This document shows positions 32,436 to 55,356 of a stretch of 64,000 bases of DNA, piece by piece (position 1 is the stretch's first letter; every line of letters starts with the position of its first letter). The notes below the pieces were generated by a model that saw nothing but the letters and a program-made list of their open reading frames with translations, was not told where the DNA came from and did not search any database. Source of the stretch: Microbacterium rhizomatis (GTDB lineage Bacteria > Actinomycetota > Actinomycetes > Actinomycetales > Microbacteriaceae); NCBI RefSeq assembly GCF_008710745.1, contig NZ_VYSA01000001.1, positions 682,001 to 746,000 of the forward strand, read 5' to 3'. The translations under genes and the position numbers were made by a program.

Positions 32436-33653
32436 TCAGCGAGCGTCGGTGACCAGCCGCCACCCCCGTGGACCGCGTTCGACATCGCCCTCCAGCGCGA
32501 AGAATCCGAGCAGCGCTCCCACCTCGTCAGGGTCCATGCCCGCCTGACGGGCGATCTCCACCGTCTCGCGCCATGTGCGAGTGCTCAGCGCATCGCGCAC
32601 TCTCGTGGAGTCGTCCGTGCGGGCGCCGCGGCCTCGTTCAGACCAGGCGACCGCAACAGTGTCGCCCGCCAGTTCGCGAACTTCGTCGGGAGTGGTGACA
32701 CACCGGGCGTCGAATTCTCTGATCAGGCGATGGCAGACTGCCGATGTCGCGCTCGTGATCGGCCCGGGGACAGCACCGAGCGGGCGACCGAGCGAGGCCG
32801 CGTGGGCGGCGGTGTTGAGCGACCCGCTCCGCCATCCCGCCTCGACAACGACGGTGGCGTCGCTCAGCGCCGAGATGAGGCGGTTCCGCTGCAGGAAGCG
32901 CCATCGAGTGGGCGCGGATCCGCAGGGCACTTCGCTCGCGACGGCACCGCCCTCCGCGATCCGGCCGATCAGATGCGCATGGCCGGCCGGGTAGGGCCTC
33001 TCCACACCCCCGGCGAGGAGGGCGACCGTCAGCCCTCCTGCTCCGAGCGCGGCGCGGTGAGCAGCACCGTCTATCCCGTAGGCGGCACCCGACACCACCC
33101 CGATGCCGCGTGCCGCCAGATCACTCGCGAACTGCGACGCGACGTGTTCGCCGTAGGCGGTCGCCGCACGCGCTCCGACCAGTGCGACCGATGGCTGCAA
33201 CCGACCCAGTGCGGCCGGGTCTCCGCGCACCCACAGCCCGAGCGGAGCGTGCGCTCCGAGGTCGCCCAGCTGACTCGGCCAGTCACGGTCACCAGGCTGG
33301 AGCAGACGTATCCCGTGGCGCCGCGCGACCTCCCACCCTGCGCCGATCCCCGCCGCGTCCAGTCGCGGCCGCCAGCGTCTGCGGCCCGCACGATACTCGG
33401 CCGGGGAAACCCCCGAGGCCTCCGCGATCGCCCCCGTGTCCGGCGTGTCCGACCGCGCGGCGGTGAGGGCGTCGACGGCACCGAGGGCGGCGATCAGTCG
33501 ACCGGCCACGCCGTCACCGGGCTCCGTCAGAGCGTTCCAGACGGCCAGGGCATGACGAGCGACGGCTTCACCATCGTCGGCGAGCGCGTCGGGGTCGACG
33601 AGACCGGCGAGCTGCATGCGGGCAGAGACCGGCGACGGTTCCCGTGCGGTCAC
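32436..33653 (-). CDS. dprA: DNA-processing protein DprA
   Basis: DprA loads RecA on incoming single-stranded DNA during transformation. The Rossmann-like core is evident: VALVGARAATAYGEHVASQFASDLAARGIGVVSGAAYGIDGAAHRAAL, followed by SALSDATVVVEAGWRSGSLNTAAHAASLGRPLGAVPGP. The C-terminal winged-helix region is present (TRTWRETVEIARQAGMDPDEVGALLGFFALEG). Length is 405 residues. The start overlaps the comM remnant by four bases. Confidence 0.93.
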   Translation of the reverse strand: MTAREPSPVSARMQLAGLVDPDALADDGEAVARHALAVWNALTEPGDGVAGRLIAALGAVDALTAARSDTPDTGAIAEASGVSPAEYRAGRRRWRPRLDAAGIGAGWEVARRHGIRLLQPGDRDWPSQLGDLGAHAPLGLWVRGDPAALGRLQPSVALVGARAATAYGEHVASQFASDLAARGIGVVSGAAYGIDGAAHRAALGAGGLTVALLAGGVERPYPAGHAHLIGRIAEGGAVASEVPCGSAPTRWRFLQRNRLISALSDATVVVEAGWRSGSLNTAAHAASLGRPLGAVPGPITSATSAVCHRLIREFDARCVTTPDEVRELAGDTVAVAWSERGRGARTDDSTRVRDALSTRTWRETVEIARQAGMDPDEVGALLGFFALEGDVERGPRGWRLVTDAR

Positions 33654-34279
33654 GGGGTGATCCCCTTCTTCAGGTACAGCGCACGGCCGACATGGCCCAG
33701 CTCCAGGCGCTCGTCTCCTGCGAGGTCTGCGATCGACCAGGCGACCCTCAGCACCCGGTCGTAGCCGCGGAGAGTCAGCGCGCCTCGCTGCAGAGCCGCG
33801 TCGAGCGGCCTGCGGACCACTCGATCAGGAGCGACCGGACCGTTCCGCAGCCACGTGCCGGCTACCTCCGCGTTGAGCCGCCATGAGGTGGAGCCCAGGC
33901 GGCGCGCCGTCCGCTCCCGGGCCAGGAGCACGCGCTCACGTGCAGCCGCCGTGGAGATCGAGGACGACGTCTCGGGCCCCGTGAGGGATGACACTCGCTG
34001 CAGGGCCAATTCGATGTCCATGCGGTCCAGGAGCGGCCCTGACAAACGCGCCGCATAGCGGCGAATCGCGTTCGGTGCGCAGACACATGCTCCGCCGACC
34101 ACTCCGTAGTTGCCGCACGGGCACGGATTGGTCGCGAGAACGAGCTGGAACCTCGCGGGGAAGGATGCGGCGATCCCCGATCGATGGATCCGGATCGCCC
34201 CGCTCTCCAGCGGCTGCCGCAAGGCGTCCAGCGCGTGGGAGGCGAACTCTCCGGCCTCAGCAAGGAATGGAAAGTACAC
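33650..34279 (-). pseudogene. comM: comM (YifB-family AAA+ protein), 5' part missing
   Basis: Only the C-terminal ~205 residues of the ~510-residue ComM/YifB Mg-chelatase-like helicase remain. Visible parts are the end of the AAA+ module (LAEAGEFASHALDALRQPLESG, FQLVLATNPCPCGNYG with the zinc cysteines, SGPLLDRMDIELAL) and the C-terminal domain ending LGHVGRALYLKKG. The Walker A half is gone. Homology stops at GVYFPFLAEAGEF, where the family expects about GVLFLDEAPEF, exactly at the direct repeat. The missing half and the usual upstream yraN gene presumably lie beyond the island. The GTG at 34279 is accidental. Confidence 0.9.
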
Positions 34280-34284
34280 CCCGG
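34257..34284. repeat. Island junction, att-type direct repeat copy 1
   Basis: The 24-bp sequence beginning TCAGCAAGGAAT and ending GTACACC matches 38106-38129 exactly. After one mismatch both continue with CGG. A further TAGCCGCCG lies 20 bases beyond the core here (34300) and 21 bases beyond it at copy 2 (38150). The left side is comM coding sequence; the right side is island DNA. This is the pattern of an attachment site used by a site-specific recombinase in comM. Confidence 0.8.
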
Positions 34285-34403
34285 TGTATGCACCAATGCT
34301 AGCCGCCGCCTACGACCTTGCAGCCTACGTCGCTCGCGTAGTCGCCGTGAAAAACGGGGACGGACGGACGGACGGGCAAGATAACGGCGAGGAGTTCGGT
34401 GAT

Positions 34404-34417
34404 TACGTTCTGACGTA
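34404..34417. promoter_or_regulatory. Dyad next to the ArsR-like gene
   Basis: TACGT-TCTG-ACGTA is a perfect five-base inverted repeat ten bases before the ATG. It overlaps a possible -10 (TAGAGT at 34416-34421), which would give a leaderless or nearly leaderless mRNA. It is a candidate autoregulatory operator for the winged-helix protein encoded next. Confidence 0.35.
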
Positions 34418-34427
34418 GAGTTGGCGT

Positions 34428-34955
34428 ATGGGCGTGCATGATGTTGAGGCGCGGTTGAGTGCGTTGGAACAGACAGTCACGGAGTTGCAGGGGCGTTTCG
34501 CTGCGGACGCTTCCCGCCCCAACTCGGACATGTCCGGCTCGACAGCTGAGGCGTTGTGGGCATTGGAGGGTCTGAAAACTCGTTCCCCCGAGGGCGGGGC
34601 GGTGCTCTATACCGGTGCCGTCGATCTGCCGACCGGAGGCGCCGTGCAGTGGCAGTACAGTCTGGCTGCGTCCGAGGTTCTGGCGCAGGACTGGACGAAG
34701 CATGCGGACTTGTTGGATGCACTGGGGCATCCGATTCGTTTGGCGATTCTGCAAGCCGTGCTGCAAGGGACGGTAACCGCGTCGGGGTTGGTCGAAACGC
34801 TGGAGAGCGGGACGAGCGGTCAGGTCTATCACCATCTGAAAGAGCTGACCACGACGGGATGGCTCGCCCCTGCCGGTCGTGGCGCGTACGAGGTTCCCGC
34901 GGCTCGGGTGGTGCCATTGCTGGCGATCCTGGTGGCTGCGGGGACGCCACGATGA
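34428..34955 (+). CDS. ArsR-like winged-helix regulator
   Basis: The 175-residue protein starts with a short coiled coil (VEARLSALEQTVTELQG). A beta-rich middle (GGAVLYTGAVDLPTGGAVQWQYS) could sense a ligand. It ends with an ArsR-type winged helix at about residues 95-160: HADLLDALGHPIRLAILQAVLQG, SGQVYHHLKELTTTGWL, RGAYEV. The phrase LGHPIRLAIL is diagnostic of the ArsR superfamily. No metal-binding cysteine pair is seen, so a metal sensor is unlikely. The stop overlaps secA2 (ATGA), so it probably regulates or works with SecA2. Confidence 0.75.
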   Translation: MGVHDVEARLSALEQTVTELQGRFAADASRPNSDMSGSTAEALWALEGLKTRSPEGGAVLYTGAVDLPTGGAVQWQYSLAASEVLAQDWTKHADLLDALGHPIRLAILQAVLQGTVTASGLVETLESGTSGQVYHHLKELTTTGWLAPAGRGAYEVPAARVVPLLAILVAAGTPR

Positions 34956-37288
34956 GGCCGCCCGTTCCCTGGTGGGCAGCCCAGATTCTCGGATTGCCGG
35001 GAGCCGTGTCCTTTCGCCGCTACGTGCCGATCATCCGCGACGCGAACGCGCTCGAAGAGCGGATGCGCGCGCTGGATGACGACGCGCTCCGCGCCGAAGC
35101 GGCGTCGCTCGCCTTCCGCACCGGAGAGCGGCGGCTGCAACGAGAGGCCACAGCGCGGTATCTCGCGGTTGCGCGGGAAGCGGCGGCACGTACGGTGGGG
35201 CTGCGCGCGTTCGATGAGCAGCTGCTGGGGTGCTGTGCGCTGTTGTCGGGTCATGCGGTGGAGATGGATACCGGTGAGGGCAAGACCCTTGTCGGCGCTC
35301 TCGCCGCCGCAGGTTTCGCCGCCGCGGGCAGGCGGGTGCACGTGATCTCGGTGAACGACTACCTCGCTGAGCGCGATGCGACCTGGATGGGGCCGTTCTT
35401 CGATCTTCTCGGGGTGAGCGTGGGATGGATCGGCCAGCACACCCCGCATGACGACCGCCGTACCGCGTACAAGTGTGATGTCGTGTACGCGCCGGTGAGC
35501 GAGGTCGGGTTCGACGTGCTCCGCGACCGCTTCACCGTCACCCCGGAAGAGCGGGTGGCTCCGGTGTTCGATGTCGCGATCATCGATGAAGCGGATTCAG
35601 TGATGATCGACGAGGCGATGGTCCCGCTCGTGCTCGCCGGTTCCTCCGAGCACGAGGCCGACGAGTTCGACCACGCCACTGCACTCGTGGAGGCTCTCGT
35701 CCCGGATGAGGACTTCACCGTCGACGCAGACCAGGCCACCGCCAGCCTGACCGACGACGGACTCGACCGGCTGGAGGCGAAGCTCGGCGGGATCAACCTC
35801 TACGACGTGGAGCATCTGGGGATGTTCACCCGCATCAACCTCGCCCTGCACGCCCGGGTCCTGGTGCACCGTGACGTGGACTACCTGGTGGCCCACGGAA
35901 AGATCACACTGATCAACACCACCCGGGGACGGGTCGCGCATCTGCAACGATGGCCCGACGGCCTCCACGCCGCACTCGAAGCAAAGGAGCACCTGCCCGT
36001 CTCCGCGCCCGGGGTGATCCTCGACCAGATCACCATCCAAGACCTCCTCCTCCAGTACAAGACCACGGCCGGAATGAGCGGCACCATCACCGCGGTCGCG
36101 GAGGAACTCATCGAGTTCTACCGGCTCCCCGCAGGCCGCGTCGAACGACACGAACCCAACCAGCGTATCGACACCCCCGACATCATCGTGCTGACCGAAG
36201 AAGCGAAAACCGCGGCCATCATCAGTGACGTGACAACACGACACCAGACGGGGCAGCCGGTCCTCGTGGGGACACAGAGCGTCGCCGAGTCCGAAGCCCT
36301 CGCCGCCCGCCTCGACGCGACCGGGGTTCCGGTGCGGGTGCTGAATGCGAAGAACGATGCTGAGGAAGCCGAGATCGTGGCACGTGCGGGCGAGTACGGC
36401 GCTGTGACGATCTCGACACAGATATCCGGGCGGGGCACCGACATCAGGCTCGGAGGCTCTGACGGGCGCGACCGGGACCGGGTCGTGAAAGCAGGGGGCC
36501 TCGCTGTGATCGCGACAAGCCGATACCCCTCCCGTCGACTTGACGCGCAACTGCGCGGGCGGGCCGGACGGCAAGGCGACCCCGGCGTCAGCTGCACTTT
36601 CCTCAGCTTGGACGACGACGTGATCCAGTTGCATGCCACCGACCGCATCGTGACCCGCATCCACCGGGAACAGAGCACGTTGCCCGGCGTCACACGCCAG
36701 AAGATCGCCGACCAGTGCCAGGCGATCGCGGAGAGCCAGCGCACCGACCGCCATCGTGCGACCTGGGTCTACAACCGCGCCATCGCCGCACAACGAACAG
36801 CCGTCCTCGCGCACCGCGAAGAGATCATCGACAGCTCGGTCGCGGACGGACGAGTGCGCGACCTCATCGCCGAGCACTGGCAGCGCCTCGTAGATGCTCG
36901 GGGGCTGGCACGCGTGTCAGAGACCACCCGGGCCGTCGCGCTGTTCTACCTGGATGAGCAATGGGTCTCGCACCTGACCGTCTTGCAGGAGATCAGGGAC
37001 GGCATCCATCTCCGCGCACTCGGCGGCGAGAAACCGGCCGACGAGTTCCACCGGCTCGCCCTCCGCGAGTTCCACGGCTTCTTCGACCGCACCTACCGCG
37101 AAGTCGCGGACTTCATCGCGGGACTCAGTCCCGACGATGTCGGCCGCGATCTCACAGAGTTGGGGCTCCGACGCCCCTCCGCGACCTGGACGTATATGGT
37201 CACCGACGACCCCTACGGCAACCCCGGAGACCGCTTCATCCGCCGGGTCGGAAGGTTCGTCCGCTCCACAATCCTCAACCTCGAATAG
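34952..37288 (+). CDS. secA2: SecA2-type preprotein translocase ATPase
   Basis: This is a 778-residue SecA paralogue of the accessory (actinobacterial SecA2) type. Walker A is MDTGEGKT at residues 105-112, Walker B is AIIDEADSVMIDEA, and motifs STQISGRGTDIRLGG and AQLRGRAGRQGDPG of the second ATPase domain are intact. The preprotein cross-linking region is shorter than in housekeeping SecA, and the C-terminal zinc-binding SEC-C motif is absent. The housekeeping secA is not in this window. It would power export of a subset of proteins through SecYEG. Finding it as cargo of an island between att-like sites, coupled to a regulator, is unusual. Confidence 0.88.
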   Translation: MRPPVPWWAAQILGLPGAVSFRRYVPIIRDANALEERMRALDDDALRAEAASLAFRTGERRLQREATARYLAVAREAAARTVGLRAFDEQLLGCCALLSGHAVEMDTGEGKTLVGALAAAGFAAAGRRVHVISVNDYLAERDATWMGPFFDLLGVSVGWIGQHTPHDDRRTAYKCDVVYAPVSEVGFDVLRDRFTVTPEERVAPVFDVAIIDEADSVMIDEAMVPLVLAGSSEHEADEFDHATALVEALVPDEDFTVDADQATASLTDDGLDRLEAKLGGINLYDVEHLGMFTRINLALHARVLVHRDVDYLVAHGKITLINTTRGRVAHLQRWPDGLHAALEAKEHLPVSAPGVILDQITIQDLLLQYKTTAGMSGTITAVAEELIEFYRLPAGRVERHEPNQRIDTPDIIVLTEEAKTAAIISDVTTRHQTGQPVLVGTQSVAESEALAARLDATGVPVRVLNAKNDAEEAEIVARAGEYGAVTISTQISGRGTDIRLGGSDGRDRDRVVKAGGLAVIATSRYPSRRLDAQLRGRAGRQGDPGVSCTFLSLDDDVIQLHATDRIVTRIHREQSTLPGVTRQKIADQCQAIAESQRTDRHRATWVYNRAIAAQRTAVLAHREEIIDSSVADGRVRDLIAEHWQRLVDARGLARVSETTRAVALFYLDEQWVSHLTVLQEIRDGIHLRALGGEKPADEFHRLALREFHGFFDRTYREVADFIAGLSPDDVGRDLTELGLRRPSATWTYMVTDDPYGNPGDRFIRRVGRFVRSTILNLE

Positions 37289-37354
37289 CGCGAGGTCGGC
37301 CAGGCACTGCTGGCGCAGCCTGGTGAGCTCTCACGATGCCGCATTAGTTGTTCG

Positions 37355-37373
37355 GTTCCTATCAGCGAGGAAT
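37355..37373. repeat. Degenerate att-like site, copy 3
   Basis: GTTCCTATCAGCGAGGAAT matches GTTCCCATCAGCAAGGAAT at 38099-38117 in 17 of 19 positions. It shares the left arm with copy 2, whereas copies 1 and 2 share the right arm. This is what tandemly integrated elements using one core would leave. It lies between secA2 and the ComJ-like gene. Confidence 0.5.
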
Positions 37374-37477
37374 CTCCCAGGTCTTCCAAGGTGGCCGCGC
37401 ACCGATGTGAGCCTCATTTCCGGTGATCTGCATGATCCCCCGTGCACGACATCGAGGATGTCGTAGAAGATGAGCGT

Positions 37478-37987
37478 ATGGGTGTGCTCTTTGACGATCT
37501 GGTATTCACGTCGTATGCGCAGATGACCTTGACGACGGGGACGGTCGAAGCGCCGATCCCTGATGTCGCGTTCGTCGGTCAGGAGAACGGGCTGTGTGGG
37601 GCGGCAGTCGCCGGGGCGCTGTTTCTCATCACAGGAACGCACACCGGCGATGTCCCTGTGCGAGTCAGCCTGTGGGACGAGGCGCCCGACCTCAGCGAGT
37701 GGGAGGAAGTGGTCGAGGCGAGCATCGTCCCCGCCGGCGAAGCCGCATTCGCCGGGTGGGCAGACGATCCGGTGGTGCGCTTCGACCTACCCGCCCCCAG
37801 CTATCGCGTGCGATGGAACGCCAAGGGGCTGGACGCCGGCCACGCTCAGGACAACACTGCAGATCACCCCGCACCCGACGCCTACGAGCTGATGCTCTGG
37901 CCAGCACCGTACTCAGCCGACGCGATCCTGCGACGCACCGCAGCGCAGGCCGCGTACTGGCATGACGAGGGATTCACCCGTCGCTAG
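37478..37987 (+). CDS. Hypothetical protein, ComJ-like
   Basis: This 169-residue acidic, beta-rich protein has no signal peptide or membrane helix. Its outline resembles the competence nuclease inhibitor ComJ: an N-terminal DLVFTSYAQMTLTTG strand pair, a GLCGAAVAGALFLITGTHTG segment, then VVRFDLPAPSYRVRW and a C-terminal YELMLWPAP. The similarity is seen by eye and is weak. If correct it could inhibit a nuclease or act as an immunity protein. The ATG at 37478 is preferred over 37442. A perfect dyad ACGACATC-GAG-GATGTCGT at 37446-37464 sits just upstream and may be an operator. The gene is alone between two att-like sites. Confidence 0.55.
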   Translation: MGVLFDDLVFTSYAQMTLTTGTVEAPIPDVAFVGQENGLCGAAVAGALFLITGTHTGDVPVRVSLWDEAPDLSEWEEVVEASIVPAGEAAFAGWADDPVVRFDLPAPSYRVRWNAKGLDAGHAQDNTADHPAPDAYELMLWPAPYSADAILRRTAAQAAYWHDEGFTRR

Positions 37988-38105
37988 CCAGCGCTCTCGT
38001 GCTACGGGAGGCGGAACAAGTCACCTGGTCTACCCCGTCGCTGCCGCGAGTCTGGTGCTTCCGAAACAGCGACGTGACCTCGCCCGCGTAGCACTTCAGT
38101 TCCCA

Positions 38106-38133
38106 TCAGCAAGGAATGGAAAGTACACCTCGG
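38106..38133. repeat. Att-type direct repeat copy 2
   Basis: This is an exact 24-bp copy of the comM junction sequence, followed by T and CGG, in direct orientation, with the TAGCCGCCG arm motif at 38150. The 3.85 kb between copies 1 and 2 holds the ArsR-like, secA2 and ComJ-like genes and no recombinase. That segment therefore looks like a passive cassette (CIME-like) next to the larger element. The 233 bases from 37988 to 38220 hold no other recognisable feature. Confidence 0.8.
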
Positions 38134-38220
38134 CTGGGTGACTTCATTGTAGCCGCCGAGGGGGTTGTTGACGGGGTTGATCATTGGTGCAGGTCTCAGG
38201 CCGGCGATCGCCGACTCAGA

Positions 38221-38796
38221 TCAGGCGGGGGCGAGGTAGACATTGCCTCGGTCTGAGATCTCGTAGCCAGTGGTCAGGCTGCGGGTGAGGCCGAGGTTCT
38301 TGAGTTTGCGGATGTCGATCTTCACTGCGTCCTTGTCGCGATCGAGAATCCTCGCTAGTTCCGCCGCGCGCGTGCCCGGCTGCTGTCGGATCAGCCGGAG
38401 AACTTCTCTTGTCCAGGGACCGTGGCTGCTGCGAGCGTCAAGTCTGTCCAACGCGCGAGTGATTGCTGCGCGCTCATCGGCGGCTAACTCGGTGGTGGCG
38501 GCGAGTTCGATGCGTGGGTCCGCTCCTCCCCATGACAGTTGGATTCGGAAGACTGGATGGGCTGGGTCTCCGCGCAGACTTGCGATGATCTCGGCGGCCG
38601 TGCTGAATCCGGCGTGCTCCGCGTCTGCTGGGGTGATTGACGCCGCGTCGGTTTCCTGTATTTCGTCGACGACCATGATCCCGGCGACCGAGTGGAACCG
38701 GTGCCCCGCCGAGACGCGCGGGGTCTCCCACCGACGGAAGACGACCGTGATCTCACCACGAGCGATGCTCTCGGCAACAACGTTGGTGAGGATCAT
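38221..38796 (-). CDS. ASCH-like domain protein with C-terminal winged helix
   Basis: The 191-residue protein has an N-terminal region resembling the ASCH/PUA-like fold (MILTNVVAESIARGEITVVFRRW, VSAGHRFHSVAGIMVVDEI), a family linked to RNA or modified-base binding. A C-terminal winged-helix segment follows: VLRLIRQQPGTRAAELARILDRDKDAVKIDIRKLKNLGLTRSL. The combination suggests nucleic-acid binding with a regulatory output. The exact role is unknown. It is the first gene beyond the internal att copy, transcribed toward it. Confidence 0.55.
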   Translation of the reverse strand: MILTNVVAESIARGEITVVFRRWETPRVSAGHRFHSVAGIMVVDEIQETDAASITPADAEHAGFSTAAEIIASLRGDPAHPVFRIQLSWGGADPRIELAATTELAADERAAITRALDRLDARSSHGPWTREVLRLIRQQPGTRAAELARILDRDKDAVKIDIRKLKNLGLTRSLTTGYEISDRGNVYLAPA

Positions 38797-38856
38797 CTGT
38801 CAACTCTACGAACGACTCTCACCCCGTGGTGCTCCCCCGCGGCGTTGGAATTGGCA

Positions 38857-39612
38857 TTACATCTTGGATTCGCCGAGTCGACCCTCGAGTTCTTTGAGGG
38901 TTCGACTTTGCTGTTCGTTGAACAAGGCGCTGGTGTATTCGGAGACGAGGTCGGCTGTTCCGCTGAGGTCGATCGGCGGTTCTGCCGCGGCGAAATCGTC
39001 GATCGCGATGCTAAAGGTAGTCATGAAGTCCTCGACCAGATCGGCGACGTCCTGCTCGGTGCTGTCGGGGCCGAGCCGGGCGAAGCGTTCGGAGATGCGG
39101 GTCACCTCCGGCGCCAGCCCTGGCGCGCTGAGTCGCTGGTAGAAGTTGGCAAGGTGCGGCATTCCGTCCTCGCCGACAAGGTGGGCCAGGAGCACGGACT
39201 GATCCCGGTCGATCTTCATCATTTCCGGCGACAGTCCCGTGGCTGCGAACAGGGCGAGGAATGGGGCCAGCTCGGGTGGAAGGTCTGGGGCGGCGTTGTG
39301 ATCGCGGAGTCGCGCGATCAGGTCTCGTTGTTTGGTGAGGTGGCCGATCTGCCTAACCAGTTCCTCGTCCAGCTCATCCAGCAACCCTTGGGCATCGTCG
39401 TCGGTGTCGTCGAGAAGGTCAGGCATTCTCTCTAGCGGGATGCCGAGGGAAGCGAGGCGTTTGATCCGCAGGACACGGATCAGATCATGGACGTTGTACT
39501 CTCGGTAGCCGTTGCTGCGACGCTCGGGCTCCGCGAGAACACCGACGTGATGGTAGTGACGCAGCGCGCGGACGGTCACTCCGGAGAGTCGCGCCAGTTC
39601 ACTGCTATGCAC
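38857..39612 (-). CDS. MerR family transcriptional regulator
   Basis: The 251-residue protein starts with a MerR helix-turn-helix and wing: SSELARLSGVTVRALRHYHHVGVLAEPERRSNGYREYNVHDLIRVLRIKRLASLG. A long coiled coil with LDELDEELVRQIGHLTKQRDLIARL follows, then a ~140-residue helical ligand domain of unrecognised type, not TipAS. The start overlaps the 3' end of the MFS gene by eight bases, so the two are one operon and the regulator probably controls the exporter. Confidence 0.88.
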   Translation of the reverse strand: MHSSELARLSGVTVRALRHYHHVGVLAEPERRSNGYREYNVHDLIRVLRIKRLASLGIPLERMPDLLDDTDDDAQGLLDELDEELVRQIGHLTKQRDLIARLRDHNAAPDLPPELAPFLALFAATGLSPEMMKIDRDQSVLLAHLVGEDGMPHLANFYQRLSAPGLAPEVTRISERFARLGPDSTEQDVADLVEDFMTTFSIAIDDFAAAEPPIDLSGTADLVSEYTSALFNEQQSRTLKELEGRLGESKM

Positions 39613-40861
39613 CGTCGGCCTCCGCCTTCTCGCCTCTCACTGCCTGTTCGCTCTGGGGTTCCAGACTACGCAAGGACCGTGCTGACAGGCCGAGGACGAG
39701 GGCGATCAGCCATAGCGAGGCGAGAAGCACCGCTGCGACATTCACCCCGACGTACTCGGTCAGTACCGCAGCGGCGACGATTCCGACCGGCGGGGCGGCG
39801 GTCATGATCGCGTTCTGTGTTCCCATGATCCGTCCCCGCATCTGCTCGGGGATTCGCTCGATCATCAGCACCCCGACCAGGCTGCCGAACAGTCCGCTGG
39901 ACAGCCCGACAACGAACGCCCCGGCAAACACCACCCACACCGAGGACAGGGAGGCGATGATCCCAAACCCGAGGGTGCTGCCGATCAGCCCGGCCAGGAA
40001 CCACACTCGCCGGCGTCCCCTCGTCCCAGCAACCGCGTAGACCGTTCCGCCGACGAGCATCCCACCAGCGAGGGCGGTGAGAACGAACCCGAGCATTCCT
40101 GACTGCTCGAGCAGCGTGAAGTAGACCGGCAGAATCAGCCCTTGCAACGAGGCGAGCACGATCACCGACACAAGACTGAGCGTCGTCGTGACCAGCAGGA
40201 ATGGGCTTCGGAACAGCACCCGCCACCCGTCACGCAGCTGTGACCACCCATTCCCCGTCGTTGTCGCCGCCGCGCCGACCGCAATCACGATCACCCCAAC
40301 GCGGTGCGGGATGAACAGGGTGAGTAGTGCGGCAGCCAATGAGGTTGCCGCGGTGATCCACAACACCGTAGACCCGTCGAAAAGCACCATTAGCGCACCT
40401 GCCATCGCCGGGCCGAGCAGCAGCGCGACTGCGCCCAACGCCTCACGGATGCCCATGAGCCGTTCCGCAGCGATCCCACCGTGACGCACGATCGCCGGCA
40501 ACAGAGCATCCCTCGCTGTCATTCCAGGCACGTCACCCAGCGAACCAATGACGCCGAACAGAATGAACCACCCCAAGCTCAGCCCCGAGATCATGTCGAT
40601 CAACGGGAGAGCTGCGACCGCTGCCGCCGAGACGAGATCGGTCACGACCGACGATGTGCGGCGGTTGATCCTGTCGATCACCACCCCCATCAGCAGACCA
40701 GCAAGCACCGCCGGGATCGCGGTGGCTGCGGCAACCGCACCAGCGCCCAGGGCGCTGCCAGTGACCTGCAACACGATCAACGGCAGAGCAACCCCAGCGA
40801 TCGAGTTGCCAAGCAAGGACAGCAGTTAGGACGCCAGGTACGCCAAGGGAATGAGCTTCAT
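39605..40861 (-). pseudogene. MFS efflux transporter with an in-frame stop at codon 12
   Basis: The protein is a 12-helix MFS exporter of the macrolide-efflux type (GVVIDRINRRTSSVVTDLVSAAAVA loop, QMRGRIMGTQNAI in the second half). The natural ATG at 40861 opens MKLIPLAYLAS and then meets TAA at 40828-40826, after which the family sequence continues in the same frame (LLSLLGNSIAGVALPLIVLQ). A CAA-to-TAA change would explain it. Restart at TTG 40816 would give a 403-residue protein lacking the start of helix 1, so residual function cannot be excluded. TTGACT at 40898-40893 is a candidate -35. Confidence 0.7.
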
Positions 40862-40950
40862 ACATCAAGTCAGAACCATGACGTAAGGGCGGAGTCAAGC
40901 CCCGCACAGGTGAGCACTCCCCTAGACGAACTTGCCTACGTCCGTCCTGT

Positions 40951-41490
40951 CTGCTCGCAGCGCTCATCGCCGGCACCGAATACCTCGACGGCCAGCTCCG
41001 CACCACCCTCAGCGCCATACCCAAGCGAGGGCGTGTGCTCGCGGCGAAGTTCATCGTGATCGCCTTGCTCGCCCTGCTCGTCGGCATCATTGCCACTGGC
41101 ACGGCTGTCCTCCTCAAACATGCCGTACTCGGCGAACATGGGCTCTCCCTCGGAGAGTTCACCGCGGCTATCGAGTGGAACCTCGTCGGCGTCGCCGTGA
41201 ACTACACGCTGATAGGACTAATCGCCGCCGCCGTCACCATCCTCGCCCGCACATTCATCGTGACCCTCGTCGTACTCGTCCCGTTGGTGCTCGGACTCAC
41301 CATCTCCCTGCTGGGAGTCATCCCGGCCCTGAAGTTCCTGCCGGACCTCGCTGGAATCCAACTCTTGACGAGCTATCCGGGAATCGGACTTCTCGACCCA
41401 ATACCAGGCGGATTCGTCATGGCGACGTGGACCGTGCTGTTCGGGGTCGCGTCCTGGCTCATCTTCCGCAGACGTGACACCAATGGCTGA
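40951..41490 (+). pseudogene. ABC-2 type permease, 5'-truncated
   Basis: Homology to the permeases at 44.6-46.0 kb begins abruptly at LAALIAGTEYLDGQLRTTLSAIPKR, matching the middle of those proteins (for example GVIASTSEYIGGQIRTTLVAIPDR). It continues through four membrane segments to the normal C-terminal sequence ending LIFRRRDTNG. About 80 N-terminal residues are missing and no start is present. It is a remnant of a duplicated exporter module. Confidence 0.8.
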
Positions 41491-41540
41491 GGATGGCGTC
41501 AGCGGCCGGCGCCCGAACAGACCTCACCTCTGGGAAGCAG

Positions 41541-41728
41541 ATGCTGAGGAATGGCGGGGCGAGCTTCTCACCGCTCGTCACTCGGGCTCGCTCTCATCAC
41601 ATCCCGGTTGATCCCGTCGCGTTCGACTGCGTGAAGCTGATCGTCGTTCGTTCAGGCAGCTCTCTCCCGTTCAGCGAGTCCGATACTCGCACGTGAAACT
41701 CGGAGATGCTGTTGTCGCGCGGTCGAGT
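41541..41728 (+). pseudogene. AraC-type regulator fragment, frameshifted
   Basis: From the ATG at 41541 the product reads MLRNGGASFSPL, then VDPVAFDCVKLIVVRSGSS, closely matching the N-termini of the two intact AraC genes at 51.1 and 54.3 kb. One base is missing near 41692 (GTRHVNVGD in the intact copy becomes a shifted HVKLGD), creating a stop. After about ten more codons homology ends. The region to 41781 holds nothing else recognisable. It follows the truncated permease, the same order as at the intact FtsX-AraC pair. Confidence 0.85.
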
Positions 41729-41781
41729 AGGAACAGCCCGCAAGAGCGGACGTATCCACAGTTGGTGAGTGGAGGTGCCGC

Positions 41782-42156
41782 CTATTCACTACTTGGGCGG
41801 CTGATCGTGATGGTTCCGCTGGTGAGCGCGTCGCGGAGGCATCCGGCAATGCGCTGCGCATCGTCCTCGGTTGAGTCCGCACGCAAGGTGAGCCCGTACC
41901 CGGAAGCAGGGAGGTCCGCCGTCATCACCGCCGTGTCGACGCTCGGGTCGCCGTCGCATCGCTCGTCACCTGCGAATCTGGGGTCGCTGACGCCGACCGA
42001 CCACTCCTGCCCTGGACCGTCGACCACGGTCGGCTCTGAGACGCCCGCGCATCCGACGACGCTCCCTGCCATCATGACCGCGACGCTCATGGCGAGGAGG
42101 CGGGCCGCGCCTCGAGTGCGGCGGTGGCGGCTCGGCACGCGGGTGATGCTGCTCAT
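41782..42156 (-). CDS. Small lipoprotein
   Basis: The 124-residue product has a basic start, a hydrophobic stretch LLAMSVAVMMAGSVVGC and a lipobox (VVGC) with the acylated Cys near residue 36. A short globular domain with two further Cys (CDGDPS, AGCLRD) could be disulfide-bonded. The ATG at 42156 overlaps the response-regulator stop as ATGA, with ATG 42171 as an alternative. Third in the operon behind a two-component pair, it may be a ligand-sensing or immunity lipoprotein. No named family is recognised. Confidence 0.7.
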   Translation of the reverse strand: MSSITRVPSRHRRTRGAARLLAMSVAVMMAGSVVGCAGVSEPTVVDGPGQEWSVGVSDPRFAGDERCDGDPSVDTAVMTADLPASGYGLTLRADSTEDDAQRIAGCLRDALTSGTITISRPSSE

Positions 42157-42878
42157 GGTTTGGTGCTCCATCGTGGTGCGGTTCCTGTCGATAGTGGCGG
42201 TCGAACCGGACGAGGTGCTATCAGGCCGTGTTCGTATGCGGCGATGACGAGTTGGGCGCGATCGCGGGCGGCGAGTTTAGCGAGCAGGCTGCTGATGTGG
42301 GTCTTGACCGTGTTGTGGGAGACGGTCAACTCGACGGCGATGTCGTCGTTGGAGCGCCCGCGGGCGACGAGCGTCAGGACATCTGTCTCACGCGGGGTGA
42401 GCTGAGCGAGACCCATGGGCGTGTCGGTTGGGCGGTGGTCGAGGTAGTGCTCGATCAGGGTTGTGAGGATCGTGGGGGCGAACAGTGATTCGCCGTGGTG
42501 AACGCGGCGGATCGCGTCGATGAGTTGGTCGGGGCGTGCGTCTTTGAGGATGAAGCCGCTGGCCCCGGCGCGGAGCGCCCCGTAGACGTATTCATCGAGG
42601 TCGAACATGCTGAGCACGAGCACCCGGGTGTCCGTGAGGCTCGGTGCGTGGGTGATCTGCCTGGTCGCTTCGATGCCGTCGAGTTCAGGCATGCGGATGT
42701 CCATGAGGACGAGGTCGGGGCGCAGCTCACGAGCTGCGGTGACCGCCTCTGCCCCCGTGCCTGCTTCACCCACCACGCTGAGGTCGGGTTCACGATCGAT
42801 GGCGATGCGGAGGCTGTGCCGGAGCAGAGCCTGGTCATCGACCAGCAGCAACCGGATCTGCATGGGGCGCGTGCTCAT
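42153..42878 (-). CDS. NarL/LuxR-type response regulator
   Basis: A receiver domain (IRLLLVDDQALLRHSLRIAI, phospho-acceptor Asp in DLVLMDIRMPELDG, Lys in FILKDARPDQL) precedes a LuxR helix-turn-helix (LTPRETDVLTLVARGRSNDDIAVELTVSHNTVKTHISSLLAKL). The length of 241 residues is slightly long because of a C-terminal tail (RPVRPPLSTGTAP). The start overlaps the kinase stop (ATGA). It is divergent from the ABC exporter genes at 43.8 kb, which are its probable targets. Confidence 0.93.
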   Translation of the reverse strand: MSTRPMQIRLLLVDDQALLRHSLRIAIDREPDLSVVGEAGTGAEAVTAARELRPDLVLMDIRMPELDGIEATRQITHAPSLTDTRVLVLSMFDLDEYVYGALRAGASGFILKDARPDQLIDAIRRVHHGESLFAPTILTTLIEHYLDHRPTDTPMGLAQLTPRETDVLTLVARGRSNDDIAVELTVSHNTVKTHISSLLAKLAARDRAQLVIAAYEHGLIAPRPVRPPLSTGTAPRWSTKP

Positions 42879-43738
42879 ACAACCTCGTCGGGTATGTGGG
42901 CAAGGAGACGGAAGCCTCTCCCGGTGGGTCCGGTGGTCAGGGTGCCGCCGTGCACGGCGACGCGCTCGCGCAACCCGCGGAGCCCGTTGCCTGTTCCATT
43001 CTCGGCCGACCATCCGGCTACGGGTCCTGCGTCGCGAACATCGACGGTGATACCGGAGTCATCGCGGTGAATCAAGATGTCGCTGCGTGTGTGCCCGGCG
43101 TGCCGCAGGGTGTTGGCGAGTGCTTCTCGGACGACGGAGCAGATGGTGAGTTGTACGCCGGGGGAAACGTCCCCGAGGTCGCCTTGTTTCAGTGTGACGG
43201 TGAGTCCGACGCTCTGTGCTGTCTCGATGATGCGCGGAAGGTCCGTGAGAGAGTGCGCCGGGTGGAGGGGGGCCGGGCTGTCGCTGGCGGTGCGGAGCAC
43301 GGTGAGCATGTTCCGTAGTTCTGTCGTGGTCTCGCGTCCGATTCGTTCGATGTCGGTGAAGGCTTGACGACGTTCGGCCTCGTCGTGCTCGTCGGTGAGG
43401 TTCGCCGTGGCAGCCCGTACCGTCATCAGCCCGAGCCCGTGGGAGGCGAGGTCGTGCAGATCGCGGGCGATCCGCAGCCGCTCGGCCTGCACGGCTTTCT
43501 CTGCGGCCCATTCGGTCAGCTGTGCCTCGTAGGCGCGACGTTCGGCGCGGGAGCGTAACAACGCCCACATGGTGACCCCGATTGCAGCCGCGAGGATGAG
43601 TGAGATCGCGACGATCAGATAGGGGGCAGTCGGCTCCAGCGCGAGGAGTGCGAGGAGGAGCAGCACGAACACGGCGACCGCGATCAACCATGCGCGCGAC
43701 CTCCGCGATGGCCTGTCACTGTGCTCCATACTCCTCAA
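42875..43738 (-). CDS. Sensor histidine kinase (HisKA_3/NarX type)
   Basis: The 287-residue protein has two adjacent membrane helices near the N-terminus (residues ~17-60) with almost no extracellular loop, an intramembrane-sensing layout. The dimerisation/phosphotransfer helix ERLRIARDLHDLASHGLGLM carries the His, and the ATPase has NTLRHAGH and NGLRGLRERVAVHGG. The intramembrane sensor type is common for cell-envelope antibiotic detection, as in LiaS/BceS-like systems, though the signal here is unknown. An ATG three codons downstream (43729) is a possible alternative start. Confidence 0.92.
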   Translation of the reverse strand: MRSMEHSDRPSRRSRAWLIAVAVFVLLLLALLALEPTAPYLIVAISLILAAAIGVTMWALLRSRAERRAYEAQLTEWAAEKAVQAERLRIARDLHDLASHGLGLMTVRAATANLTDEHDEAERRQAFTDIERIGRETTTELRNMLTVLRTASDSPAPLHPAHSLTDLPRIIETAQSVGLTVTLKQGDLGDVSPGVQLTICSVVREALANTLRHAGHTRSDILIHRDDSGITVDVRDAGPVAGWSAENGTGNGLRGLRERVAVHGGTLTTGPTGRGFRLLAHIPDEVV

Positions 43739-43847
43739 TCTTAGAAATCGGGGGCGGGGATGTCCTCACCCCGTGGTGTGAGAAAGGCGGGAAAGACCAC
43801 CCCTGGCTGTGGTGTGCTGCCTCTCGCCGCCTGCTGGCATGGGAGTC

Positions 43848-44555
43848 ATGTTGACCTTCGAGCACGTGACCAAGCGCCGCGGTTCCCGCGACATCCTCAC
43901 CGACATCACCTTCCACGCTCGCCCCGGCCGGGTGACTGGGTTCCTCGGACCCAACGGGGCGGGGAAGTCCTCGACGCTACGCATTTTGCTGGGTCTGGAC
44001 CGGCCCACGTCCGGGCAGGCGCTCGTGGACGGGCGGCGGTTCGCGTCGTTGCGTGACCCGCTGCGCAGTATCGGCGCGGTCCTGGACGGGTCCGGGGCGC
44101 ACCGTTCACGCACCGGTCGCGCGCATCTGCGCTGGGTTGCCCGCTCCGCAGGCGTGAGCAACGCCCGGGTTGAGGAGGTGCTGGAACTGGTGGGGATCGC
44201 GGACGCGGGGAACAAGCGGGTGTCCACGTACTCGCTGGGTATGGGTCGACGCCTGGGGCTTGCCGCCGCGCTGCTGGCCGACCCGCAGGCACTCGTGCTG
44301 GACGAGCCCGTGAACGGCCTGGACCCCGAGGGCATCCGATGGATACGACTGTTCCTGCGAGAGCAAGCAGAGGCTGGCCGAACCGTGCTGCTGTCCTCGC
44401 ATCTCATGGGCGAACTGGCTGAGACCGTCGATGACGTCGTGGTCATCGTCGGCGGCCGCATCGTCGCCGACGGCACCTTGGCCGAGGTAACCGGTGACCA
44501 CAAGAATCTCGAGGACGCGTTCTTCGCCCTGACTGGCGACCGGGGCATGCGATGA
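43848..44555 (+). CDS. ABC exporter ATP-binding protein (LanF/BcrA-like)
   Basis: The 235-residue ATPase has Walker A GPNGAGKSS, Q-loop region IGAVLDG, signature YSLGMGRRLGLAAALL, Walker B ALVLDEPVNGLD and the switch His in LLSSHLMGE. It belongs to the ABC-2/BcrA subgroup used for peptide-antibiotic immunity and lipid export. ATGA overlaps link it to two permeases. The ATG at 43848 begins the family sequence (LTFEHVTKRRGSRDIL); 43839 is in frame upstream. It is divergent from the histidine kinase. Confidence 0.92.
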   Translation: MLTFEHVTKRRGSRDILTDITFHARPGRVTGFLGPNGAGKSSTLRILLGLDRPTSGQALVDGRRFASLRDPLRSIGAVLDGSGAHRSRTGRAHLRWVARSAGVSNARVEEVLELVGIADAGNKRVSTYSLGMGRRLGLAAALLADPQALVLDEPVNGLDPEGIRWIRLFLREQAEAGRTVLLSSHLMGELAETVDDVVVIVGGRIVADGTLAEVTGDHKNLEDAFFALTGDRGMR

Positions 44556-45280
44556 GGGCGCTGCGCGCGGAGCTGTCCAAGCTCGCCACGCTGCCGTTCG
44601 TCTGGTTGGCCCTCGCTGCCGGCATCGTCGTTCCTACCGGGATCGCCGTCATCACCAGCCTGACCACCACTCCAAGCGCGGACACCGGCTTCTCCGAACT
44701 TGCCATCGGAGTGCTCGGCGCGATCATCCTCGGCACCGCTGCGATCGGCAGCGAATACACCGCCGAGGGCGAAGAATCCGCCGGTAGCCGGCAGGTCACC
44801 ACCACCCTCATCGCGACTCCTTCCCGTGTTCTCCTGCTGCTCGCGAAGATCACCGCGGTCATCATCGCCACCGCGATCCTCGCCGTCGTCGCGATCACCC
44901 TGGTCTTCGCGACCGTGCACCTGTTGCTCGGCCCAGACGCGCCTCCGCTAAGCGGTGACACCTTCGCCCGCGCAGGCGGCGCAGTCATCTACTGGGTCCT
45001 GATGGCGCTGCTCGGTTTCGGACTCACCGTCCTTACCCGCAACGGCATCATCCCAATGGCTGTTCTCGTCGCGAACTCCTCGGCAGTCACCGTCACCTAC
45101 CTGCTTGCACAGAGCATCCCCGCCGCGAACTACCTTCCCGACCTCGCCGGTATGCGCATGTTCACCACCATCCAAACCAGCGTCAACATCGACCCGCTCA
45201 CCGGCGGACTCGTCATGACCGCCTGGGTCGCAGCCCTCCTCCTCGCCGCCGGGGCCGTATTCACCCGGAGAGACGCATGA
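44552..45280 (+). CDS. ABC-2 type exporter permease (LanE-like)
   Basis: The 242-residue membrane protein has six predicted helices and the characteristic EYTAEGEESAGSRQVTTTLIATPSR segment after helix 2. It has the size and layout of one half of a LanE/LanG-type permease pair. It shares this EY-x-G-x-R-TT-x-x-x-P motif with the next gene and with the fragment at 40.95 kb, so all three are paralogues. Start and stop overlap neighbours by four bases. Confidence 0.85.
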   Translation: MRALRAELSKLATLPFVWLALAAGIVVPTGIAVITSLTTTPSADTGFSELAIGVLGAIILGTAAIGSEYTAEGEESAGSRQVTTTLIATPSRVLLLLAKITAVIIATAILAVVAITLVFATVHLLLGPDAPPLSGDTFARAGGAVIYWVLMALLGFGLTVLTRNGIIPMAVLVANSSAVTVTYLLAQSIPAANYLPDLAGMRMFTTIQTSVNIDPLTGGLVMTAWVAALLLAAGAVFTRRDA

Positions 45281-46035
45281 CCACGACCACTGCCACACGT
45301 ACCCGCGGGAGAGCATTCGCGGACGCAGTCCGCACCGAAGCATCCAAACTATGGTCGCTGCCCGCGACCTGGCTCCTCCTCGGCGGAACGCTCGCGCTCA
45401 CCATCGTCCTGTCGATCGCGTTCGGCACCAGCGCGAACCTTGGCCCCGGCCAGACGGTGAACATCCTCGACTACGGCGTCACCGCCGTCACCTGGACGCA
45501 GTGCGGCTTCTTTCTCCTCGGCGTCATCGCCAGCACCTCCGAATACATCGGCGGACAGATCCGTACCACCCTCGTCGCCATTCCCGACCGGATCGCCTGG
45601 AGGCTCGCAGCGACCGTCGCGCTCGTCCCGTTCGCGTTCGTCGCGGGCTTCCTCGTCGTCGGCGCGAGCATCACCACCATCCTTCTCACCACAGGTGCTT
45701 CCGTTACCGAAGCCGACCTCGGCTTGGCCGCGCGAATCATCACAAGCGCAGCCGGCTACCTCACCCTCATGGCTGTCCTCAGCTCGGCCCTTGGATTCCT
45801 CATCCGGAGGGCAATTCCGGCGGCGGCGATCCTGCTCGTCTACCTGCTCATCCTCAGCCCCCTGCTGCAAAGCCAGAACTGGTACTTCCTCCCCGACATC
45901 GCCTCATACACCCTCTGGTTCGCCAGCATCCCCGATACCGCACCACCGGCGCTCGTGTCCTGGCTTGTGCTGCTCGCCTGGACTCTCGCATTTCTGATCC
46001 CGTCGATCAGCATTGCCAACAGACGCGACACGTGA
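45277..46035 (+). CDS. ABC-2 type exporter permease (LanG-like)
   Basis: The 252-residue paralogue of the preceding permease has six membrane segments and the motif SEYIGGQIRTTLVAIPDR. With the ATPase it completes a three-gene exporter of the LanFEG/BcrAB type, known to protect cells from lantibiotics and related peptides by expelling them from the membrane. The substrate is inferred only from family and from the adjacent two-component system. It ends 40 bases before an AraC-like remnant. Confidence 0.85.
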   Translation: MTTTTATRTRGRAFADAVRTEASKLWSLPATWLLLGGTLALTIVLSIAFGTSANLGPGQTVNILDYGVTAVTWTQCGFFLLGVIASTSEYIGGQIRTTLVAIPDRIAWRLAATVALVPFAFVAGFLVVGASITTILLTTGASVTEADLGLAARIITSAAGYLTLMAVLSSALGFLIRRAIPAAAILLVYLLILSPLLQSQNWYFLPDIASYTLWFASIPDTAPPALVSWLVLLAWTLAFLIPSISIANRRDT

Positions 46036-46074
46036 GGCACCGGGCAGCACGAGCAACCCCGCGAACGGTGATGG

Positions 46075-46320
46075 ATGATGACTGACAGTCTCCTCGGTCT
46101 CGCCCACTTGACGGGGCCGCTCGCGGCCATCGAAACCATTGCATGCGCCTCGACAGGGCCTGTCGCGCACGCTGGGATGAAGATCATCCACGTGATGAAC
46201 AGCTGTGCGCGGTTGACGACAGCGCGCGAAGAGCTGGCGCTGTCTCGCGGCGAGGTGCTCGTACTTGCCGCCGGACAGGTGTCAGCGACCACGCCGGAGC
46301 CCGGGTTGCGGACTACGAGG
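46075..46320 (+). pseudogene. Diverged AraC sensor-domain remnant
   Basis: The frame from ATG 46075 contains MKIIHVMNSCARL, then GEVLVLAAGQVSATTPEPG. It aligns with the sensor domain of the intact AraC genes (VKLIVVRSGSALL, then GDVVLLAAQTLCGSEPEG) with identical 23-residue spacing between the Lys and the Gly. Upstream and downstream halves of the domain are absent and it runs into the next HTH fragment. It marks the same permease-then-AraC order as elsewhere in the island. Otherwise the 290 bases between 46036 and 46325 hold nothing recognised. Confidence 0.4.
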
Positions 46321-46325
46321 CGGGG

Positions 46326-46589
46326 ATGTCGGTCAAGGACATTGCAGTGAACCACCACGTGCGTCGGGGAAGCATTCCGAAGTTGGTTGTCGCGAGCGGT
46401 GGAACACTGAGGTCGTGTGGCCTCAGCTCAACTGGCCGCACCCGCGCGCTTGCTCTCTACGACGAGGGCTTCACTTTGCAGGAGGTGGCCGCCTGCGTCA
46501 ACGCGGATGAGAAAACCGTGCGTGCCGCGATAGTCGGACTCGGCGGCGCGATTCGACCTCGTGGGCGTCGCGCGGGAGTGAAGGCGTGA
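46326..46589 (+). CDS. Tandem helix-turn-helix protein, probably 5'-truncated
   Basis: Two helix-turn-helix units are visible: MSVKDIAVNHHVRRGSIPKLV and GFTLQEVAACVNADEKTVRAAIV, then IRPRGRR. The protein is a paralogue of the one at 52160, but its first ~15 residues are not preserved at DNA level, although VADYEAG just upstream is in frame without a start codon. These HTH units resemble the C-terminal DNA-binding part of actinobacterial serine recombinases. Whether it is expressed is doubtful. Confidence 0.45.
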   Translation: MSVKDIAVNHHVRRGSIPKLVVASGGTLRSCGLSSTGRTRALALYDEGFTLQEVAACVNADEKTVRAAIVGLGGAIRPRGRRAGVKA

Positions 46590-46645
46590 CGTACAGCGAT
46601 TGAGCGTGGTCGAGAAGTGTGCTCTCTGGTGCCTCTGTGACGCGC

Positions 46646-46697
46646 TTGACTGGACAACCCTTACTCGGTAAGTTGGTGGCTGGCTTACTGAGTAAGG
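46646..46697 (+). promoter_or_regulatory. Promoter and operator of the PadR-ABC operon
   Basis: TTGACT (46646-46651) and TAAGTT (46669-46674) are spaced by 17 bases, a good sigma-A-like promoter. The dyad TTACTCGGTAA (46661-46671) overlaps the -10, and a second, better one, CTTACTGAGTAAG (46684-46696), lies between it and the PadR ATG at 46706. Two half-similar palindromes over the start site fit negative autoregulation by the PadR protein encoded next. Confidence 0.55.
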
Positions 46698-46705
46698 GGT
46701 GTGTC

Positions 46706-50954: not shown

Positions 50955-51073
50955 ACCTTCACGCTTCGAGATGCGCTCATGGACACGCAAGGACCAGGAC
51001 CAGAGACACCACTGATCCCGGCCGCCGTTCGCATCTTCATCACTCGCGAACGGACTTCACACCTGGACCGCAG

Positions 51074-51967: not shown

Positions 51968-52159
51968 GTTTGAACAACGGTGTTTAGGTCTCTCAAAGTG
52001 GACCTTCCCAAGCGATTCTCAAACAAGCGCCCGGCGCTGAGAACCCTGATTTCCCGTGTTCTTAGGGGCTCCGAGGGGCGCGGACCGCGCGCTCGGGCCA
52101 CTCAGAGACGCGATACGCGAGGCGCGGTCGCGAAAAATCCGGCGAAGTCTCAAACACGA

Positions 52160-52471: not shown

Positions 52472-52528
52472 TGCGCAGATGAGAAAATGGATGTCGAGCA
52501 TCACCAAACGCAACGGAAGGGAGCCGTC

Positions 52529-53389: not shown

Positions 53390-53405
53390 TCCCGGCACCT
53401 GCTTC

Positions 53406-53436: not shown

Positions 53437-53443
53437 GGTGCGT

Positions 53444-55292: not shown

Positions 55293-55356
55293 TGTCATCC
55301 TGTGACGACAACCACGGAGGCGAACGATAGGCGGTGAACCTCGCCGACTCTTCGGC

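What the first reader, a model, noticed from the sequence alone, without database searches (positions are those of the whole stretch)
34257..38133. comM is the integration site of a genomic island, with exact att-like repeats
comM is cut in the AAA+ domain at a 24-bp sequence repeated exactly 3.85 kb away, with a shared arm motif (TAGCCGCCG) at 20-21 bases. comM is a known island hotspot in Acinetobacter (AbaR) and other Gammaproteobacteria. Its use here in an actinobacterium, and the resulting loss of a natural-transformation helicase next to intact dprA, is notable.
Basis: partly seen in the sequence, partly recalled or inferred. Interest (0 to 1): 0.65.

Follow-up and report, generated by a model that had tools for sequence, protein, structure and literature searches.

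The report
Serine-integrase composite island splitting comM
A 66-kb mobile island sits inside the gene comM of an actinobacterium; it is at least two, probably three, tandem elements whose shared end sequence explains the repeat that was noticed, and similar stacks occur in related genera.

Summary
The repeat is real (24 bp exact, 28 bp with one mismatch, at 34257 and 38106; no third copy in the genome). comM is the insertion site, but the two repeats are not the island's ends. The 5' half of comM lies outside the window, 66.2 kb away, next to a large serine recombinase (LSR1). Joining the flanks at a shared 2-bp core inside the Walker B codons restores one comM frame here and in 8 of 8 other islands, with no target duplication. 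This fits serine-integrase insertion, not AbaR-like transposition.

The repeat is one arm (P') of the attachment site. Two copies exist because the island is a stack: a 62.4-kb ICE-like element (LSR1, MobF, coupling protein, Lamassu), then a 0.75-kb and a 3.1-kb module (ArsR-SecA2) without recombinase. Inner junctions read P'|GA|Z (one eroded). Z is the outer arm of elements carrying a sibling recombinase, LSR2 (50% identical), as a solo LSR2 element in comM of another genus shows. Of 12 genomes examined (not a random set), 8 hold such stacks.

comM as a serine-integrase target is published; stacks resemble SCC/ECC islands. Nothing was tested at the bench.

The parts
33650..34279 (-). comM 3' fragment, 209 codons from a GTG inside the P' arm, in frame with comM
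34257..34280 (-). P' arm, copy 1 (GGTGTACTTTCCATTCCTTGCT + core GA on the - strand); core at 34257-34258; junction of the stack with comM3'
   Evidence: activity inferred
34428..34955 (+). ArsR-like helix-turn-helix protein, module 3
   Evidence: HTH_20
34952..37288 (+). SecA2 (accessory Sec translocase), module 3
   Evidence: TIGR04221 871 bits against cut-off 725; Pfam
37362..37363 (-). core of a third, eroded junction: Z 13 of 19, P' arm mostly lost; boundary between modules 2 and 3
37442..37987 (+). 181-aa protein of unknown family, the only gene of module 2
38087..38105 (-). Z arm (16 of 19 to the consensus), comM5'-side end of module 2
38106..38133 (-). P' arm, copy 2, with core at 38106-38107: inner junction P'|GA|Z, end of the LSR1 element
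38146..38151 (-). -10-like hexamer TACAAT reading out towards module 2
   Evidence: activity inferred
38106..64000 (.). window part of the 62.4-kb LSR1 element; it runs on to C1:782,493 (core), with LSR1 at C1:780,805-782,484 (-) and comM5' at C1:782,465-783,412 (-)
55357..58815 (-). Lamassu-type defence genes (LmuB 55357-57231, LmuC 57231-57713, LmuA 57703-58815) in the LSR1 element
   Evidence: PADLOC
59489..63040 (-). MobF (TrwC-type) relaxase with helicase domains

Best explanation
A composite integrative island made by large serine recombinases (LSRs). The target attB is the Walker B coding sequence of comM, core GA in comM sense. LSR1 joins attP (arm P, core, arm P') to attB, giving comM5'-GA-P-LSR1 at one end and P'-GA-comM3' at the other with no bases lost. 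Sibling elements with LSR2 use the same attB and nearly the same P' arm but a different outer arm, Z. Elements stack at the same place, so inner junctions read P'|GA|Z, and modules that have lost their recombinase remain as att-bounded cargo. Here: comM5'-[62.4-kb LSR1 ICE-like element]-[0.75-kb module]-[3.1-kb ArsR-SecA2 module]-comM3'. Shown by sequence: the split and rejoinable comM, the arms, the junctions, the recombinase gene, the same architecture elsewhere. Inferred: that LSR1 and LSR2 catalyse the joining, that stacking happens by integration beside an occupied site, that P' carries a promoter reading into comM3' or the next module when integrated and into LSR1 when circular, and that modules 2 and 3 are stranded here for want of LSR2.
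For: LSR1 domains beside comM5' 66.2 kb from comM3'. Inverted arms, 22 bp each, around the shared core. Joined flanks give one comM frame in 9 of 9 islands. comM5' directly upstream of the LSR in 15 of 20 relatives; comM3' starts at P' in 14 of 17 genomes. Z consensus ranks 38106 first and 37362 second of 16,747 GA positions in 110 kb of this genome. Solo Z...LSR2...P' element in comM of G254. Internal P'|Z or P'|Y junctions in 8 of 12 genomes read. A 5.5-kb module shared at 96.3% from the core itself by G589 and G591, whose LSR1 elements share 29.9 kb at 82.0%.
Against: No excision, circle or recombination was observed. The third site (37362) is eroded and its P' side is not recognisable beyond a few bases; with 13 of 19 for Z it stands only one above the background maximum of 12. 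No 24-bp copy lies at the far end. LSR2 is not in this genome, so how modules 2 and 3 arrived is not seen. L024, L026 and L036 have the LSR beside other sequence, so the site choice is not strict. The -10-like hexamer has no clear -35 partner (1-4 of 6 matches) and is missing at 4 of 26 ends. The family is uncommon: 1 of 198 in the genus sample for LSR1, 2 of 394 in the class sample for P'.
Confidence: 0.85

Rival explanations
1. The 3.85-kb segment is one small island flanked by its own attL/attR direct repeats in comM.
For: Two direct repeats 3849 bp apart, one of them at the comM edge.
Against: comM5' is 66.2 kb away, not at 38106; the sequence beyond 38106 is a mobile element ending in LSR1; the left flank of the second repeat is the Z arm, also found in other genomes.
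Confidence: 0.04
2. One ancestral LSR1 element was later broken up: the inner P' copies and recombinase-less modules arose by deletion, duplication or homologous recombination, not by successive site-specific insertions.
For: Modules 2 and 3 lack a recombinase; G591's Z module looks like G589's with LSR2 deleted, and G594 carries LSR2 and small-ORF fragments inside its LSR1 element near P'; one site here is eroded.
Against: Z is a true comM-side end in a solo LSR2 element; inner junctions keep core and arms in 8 of 12 genomes; the shared G589/G591 module starts at the core base itself. Deletion may well have followed insertion.
Confidence: 0.1
3. AbaR-like or other Tn7-type transposition into comM.
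For: Same target gene family in Acinetobacter (papers listed; abstract starts only).
Against: No target duplication; flanks rejoin conservatively; serine recombinase at the end.
Confidence: 0.01

Closest known systems
LSR elements that target magnesium-chelatase/comM genes (Durrant et al. 2022, PMC10083194, one passage read; Wolbachia sr1WO prophages, PMC9203015, passages read)
   Same: Large serine recombinase, conservative insertion inside the comM-family gene, gene halves on both sides.
   Different: Those passages do not describe stacks of sibling elements with a shared arm; sr1WO is a prophage, this is ICE-like.
Staphylococcal and enterococcal cassette chromosomes, SCC/ECC (ECC: PMC6222049, outline and passages read; SCC otherwise recalled)
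   Same: LSR-driven cassettes at one conserved chromosomal gene, several att copies in a row (multiple attR in 16 of 32 ECCs), variable cargo including type I restriction, cargo segments without recombinase.
   Different: Target comM instead of rlmH; the gene is split, not kept; no adjacent ccrA/ccrB pair: LSR1 and LSR2 ride on different elements; the large element has its own relaxase and coupling protein. The ECC paper says tandem ECCs with several ccrAB were not seen directly.
AbaR-type resistance islands in Acinetobacter comM (recalled; titles and abstract starts)
   Same: Same target gene family.
   Different: Different recombination chemistry; no target duplication here.

Membership tests
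LSR-integrated element in comM | Large serine recombinase with Resolvase, Recombinase and Zn-ribbon domains at an element end | tested here: met
   position
LSR-integrated element in comM | Conservative insertion: flanks rejoin to an intact gene | tested here: met
   9 of 9 islands
LSR-integrated element in comM | attP arms in inverted orientation around a short core | tested here: met
   the exact 2-bp core is inferred from shared bases
LSR-integrated element in comM | Recombination catalysed by this LSR | not testable with these tools
   needs an assay
Integrative and conjugative element (62.4-kb part) | Relaxase and coupling protein | tested here: met
   TrwC relaxase; T4SS-DNA_transf
Integrative and conjugative element (62.4-kb part) | Complete mating channel (VirB4-type ATPase and others) | tested here: inconclusive
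   10 proteins scanned, not all; no VirB4-type match among them
SCC/ECC cassette chromosome | Insertion at the 3' end of rlmH | tested here: not met
   insertion is in comM
SCC/ECC cassette chromosome | Adjacent pair of ccr recombinase genes | tested here: not met
   only LSR1 found in this genome with the LSR2 query; in G589 and G386 the two LSRs lie on different modules
SCC/ECC cassette chromosome | Several att sites in a row at one locus | tested here: met
AbaR / Tn7-like | Short target-site duplication | tested here: not met
AbaR / Tn7-like | Tni-type transposition genes | not tested
   no search made for them
Integron cassette array | IntI tyrosine recombinase and attC sites | not tested
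   not searched; raised only as an analogy

The most novel reading that the evidence does not exclude
An integron-like cassette array run by serine integrases: elements and recombinase-less cassettes with one common arm (P') and interchangeable outer arms (P, Z, Y) pile up at the Walker B codons of comM, are moved in trans by LSR1 or LSR2, and each P' end carries an outward promoter and start codon that express whatever follows: comM3', the next module, or LSR1 in the circle.
Probability: 0.3. Interest if true: 0.72.

Novelty: new variant of a known kind. Interest (0 to 1): 0.5.

Why it matters
It suggests how serine-integrase islands grow by stacking at one conserved codon motif, gathering restriction and other cargo with exact module boundaries in several actinobacterial genera. 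Two sibling recombinases that share one arm and differ in the other make a clear test of how these enzymes choose partners, which also bears on their use as insertion tools. It corrects a 3.85-kb island to a 66.2-kb composite and explains the 'arm motif'.

Tried and rejected
A 3.85-kb island: rejected, comM5' is 66 kb away. tRNA target: no tRNA in the window. AbaR-like transposition: disfavoured by the junctions. Z as a degenerate P arm of LSR1: tried by eye with gaps, dropped when G254 showed Z as the end of an LSR2 element. The 181-aa protein as a marker of the SecA2 module: found in 19 of 398 family genomes, but no SecA match in any of the 10 regions I took around it, from 9 other genomes. 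SecA2 itself is patchy, 21 of 198 genus genomes at E <= 1e-120; 8 of those regions were fetched: the ArsR-SecA2 pair recurs in G037 (85% over 34393-37291) and G138, and none of the 8 holds the arm motif. IMG/VR scan for the exact 24-mer: 0. Plasmid collection: 9 records, all under 60% identity to LSR1. P' in a class sample: 2 of 394, own and G718 with two 3-mismatch places that I did not examine. LSR1 in the genus sample: 1 of 198, own. comM family in 38 relatives: over the cut-off in 32; own, G017, G020 split, G001 only a 5' match, G612 split at another place, G614 none; G017 and G020 carry LSRs only 24-25% identical to LSR1.

Counts differ in scope: P' in 11 of 17 genomes by the 24-mer with up to 3 mismatches, 14 of 17 by reading the comM edge, 8 of 12 with internal junctions. 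The 17 are those of the 20 LSR loci given; L019, L028 and L029 (short contigs) were left out. The 12 (own, 9 of the 17, and G254, plus G386, which I take to be the genome of L031) were chosen for several P' copies or for both ends on one contig, so 8 of 12 is not a prevalence. Untidy results: G601's middle copy ends in TA instead of GA and is followed by neither Z nor Y; G588 has a Z (18 of 19) without P' and a weak Y (19 of 24) after an eroded arm; G594 has a Z-like 14 of 19 and G254 a Y-like 16 of 24 without P', which I take as chance. The Z consensus was written by eye from sites that include the two own ones; recounted by eye from the foreign ones it is the same.

Full report
1. Observation. 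The repeat is as described: 34257-34284 and 38106-38133 agree at 27 of 28 positions, the first 24 exactly, 3849 bp apart. Shuffles of the window gave no match, and the 4.20-Mb genome holds only these two copies at up to 3 mismatches. TAGCCGCCG begins 20 and 21 bases beyond the exact repeat.

2. The far end. The comM family model finds the 5' part at C1:782,483-783,391, same strand and contig, 66.2 kb from the 3' part (the window is C1:682,001-746,000). A large serine recombinase, LSR1 (longest frame 559 codons; Resolvase, Recombinase and Zn-ribbon domains), lies at C1:780,805-782,484; its longest frame opens inside the attachment arm next to comM5'. On the + strand the near junction reads CCGGCC-TC-AGCAAGGAATGGAAAGTACACC and the far junction GGTGTACTTTCCATCCCCCAAC-TC-GTCGAGGAAGAGC: two inverted half-sites, 22 bp on either side of a TC core (GA in comM sense). 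The far arm occurs once in the genome at up to 3 mismatches.

3. The site. Joining the flanks at the core gives one 508-aa comM frame through GVLFLDEAGEF, and an unbroken frame at the same residues in 8 of 8 other islands; five intact homologues align there without a gap at the core. The core is the first two bases of the glutamate codon of the Walker B motif (motif name recalled). Nothing is duplicated.

4. Relatives. A scan of one genome per species found 20 loci with the LSR (Leucobacter, Brevibacterium, Nesterenkonia, Arthrobacter, Knoellia, Homoserinimonas, Lacisediminihabitans and others). comM5' lies directly upstream in 15 of 20; of the five others, L028 and L029 end 62 bases upstream. 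In 17 genomes searched, the comM 3' half starts at the P' arm in 14. The exceptions are the genome of L032, whose LSR is the most distant (67%), and those of L024 and L036, where comM is intact. In L024, L026 and L036 the LSR's arm adjoins other sequence after the same GAG. So comM is the regular, not the only, place. Among 38 relatives comM passes the cut-off in 32; G017 and G020 are split by LSRs 24-25% identical to this one. This agrees with the statement that magnesium-chelatase homologues are targeted by 12.4% of predicted site-specific LSRs (PMC10083194, passage). Most Wolbachia sr1WO prophages use the same gene (PMC9203015, passages).

5. What the repeat is. Elsewhere the P' arm recurs in one orientation: three copies within 21, 16 and 13 kb in G588, G589 and G601, two within 4 kb in G596 plus one on another contig. 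What follows the core at inner copies falls mostly into two classes, Z (TGGGAACCGAAGCGCTACA) and Y (GGCTCGCGAGATCGCAATTGCACC). Run over 110 kb of this genome, the Z consensus ranks 38106 first (16 of 19) and 37362 second (13 of 19) of 16,747 GA positions; the rest reach 12 at most. In G254 a solo 15.3-kb element in comM has Z at comM5', P' at comM3' and a sibling recombinase, LSR2, inside. LSR2 of G589 and LSR1 are 50% identical. So Z is the outer arm of LSR2 elements, while P' and attB are shared.

6. Maps, comM5' to comM3'. Own: P-62.4 kb-P'|Z-0.75 kb-eroded|Z-3.1 kb-P'. G589: P-58.8-P'|Y-7.7 (type I restriction)-P'|Z-8.0 (LSR2)-P'. G591: P-41.0-P'(eroded)|Z-5.6-P'. G601: P-44.3-P'|Z-13.4 (LSR2)-P'. 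G386: P-54.3-P'|Z-18.8 (LSR2)-P'. G590, G594, G602: P to P' without an inner junction, though G594 holds LSR2 fragments near P'. G254: Z-15.3 (LSR2)-P'. G588, G595, G596 were read on the comM3' side or on another contig only and show one to three inner junctions. In all, 8 of 12 genomes have an inner junction; they were not picked at random. LSR1 is in 8 of 8 P modules (truncated in G601), LSR2 in 5 of 10 Z modules, neither in 5 of 5 Y modules. The Z modules of G589 and G591 share 5499 bp at 96.3% from the core itself, while their LSR1 elements share 29.9 kb at 82.0%: the module has a history of its own. G254 and G386 share 6.6 kb at 93%.

7. Cargo. The LSR1 element has a MobF relaxase, a coupling protein and a Lamassu set; a full mating channel was not shown. 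Module 3 is an ArsR-like gene overlapping a SecA2 (871 bits, cut-off 725), a pair also found elsewhere, in G037 near a tyrosine integrase and in G138 near a distant MobF relative. Module 2 holds one protein without a family.

8. Expression logic (inferred). At 22 of 26 P' ends a TANNNT hexamer lies 42-48 bp before the core, against 5.3% of random places; no clear -35 box goes with it. P' has a GTG in frame with comM3' at 12 of 12 junctions. The truncated comM5' frame stops 24-27 bases after the core, just before the ribosome-binding site of LSR1, in 8 of 16, this one included; in the other 8 no stop was seen in the stretch read. In the joined circular site the GTG opens a 16-residue leader ending at that stop. 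The simplest reading: integrated, LSR1 rides on the comM transcript and P' transcribes comM3' or the next module; circular, P' transcribes LSR1. No promoter was tested.

9. Limits. Stacking needs an attP to join an occupied site. Ordinary serine integrases resist that without a directionality factor (recalled), but cassette chromosomes show several att copies in a row (multiple attR in 16 of 32 ECCs, though tandem ECCs with several ccrAB were not seen directly; PMC6222049, passages). A small ORF antisense to the LSR2 end matches in 5 of 5 LSR2 modules and has no Pfam match: a candidate factor, nothing more. The LSR2 query finds only LSR1 in this genome, so modules 2 and 3 may be stranded, yet the whole 66.2-kb stack still has LSR1-type outer ends.

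10. Novelty. comM as LSR site: known. Stacked LSR elements: known in kind. Ten literature searches listed no paper whose title or abstract start describes comM stacks with a shared arm and sibling LSRs; beyond listings I saw only passages of five papers and the library is partial. The paper on Leucobacter sulfamidivorax GP (PMC6868719, passages) reports ICE genes on its contig 5; 'recombinase' and 'chelatase' do not occur in its main text. Filed as a new variant of a known kind.

Noticed in passing
63873-64000 and on to C1:749,758: About 3.9 kb absent from the related G591 element, holding three overlapping tyrosine recombinase genes (a recombinase trio); a cytosine methylase frame beside it (63319-63921) is 200 codons against 327 in G591.
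   Followed up: partly
50840-51967, 54261-55292 and C1:757,285-758,220: Three AraC-family regulator paralogues, 84%, 66% and 63% identical in pairs, each near ABC-transporter or two-component genes.
   Followed up: partly
G017 (L167), G020 (L168), G612 (L170), G001 (L169): comM of other relatives is split or cut by different elements of about 8-13 kb, with unrelated LSRs in G017, G020 and G612: comM is a hotspot for several LSR families.
   Followed up: partly
L135:1942-2406 and other LSR2 modules: Conserved small ORF (154 aa in G589) antisense to the 3' end of LSR2, next to P'; no Pfam match.
   Followed up: partly
L024, L026, L036: Relatives of LSR1 whose arm adjoins non-comM sequence after the same GAG; comM is intact in the genomes of L024 and L036.
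   Followed up: no
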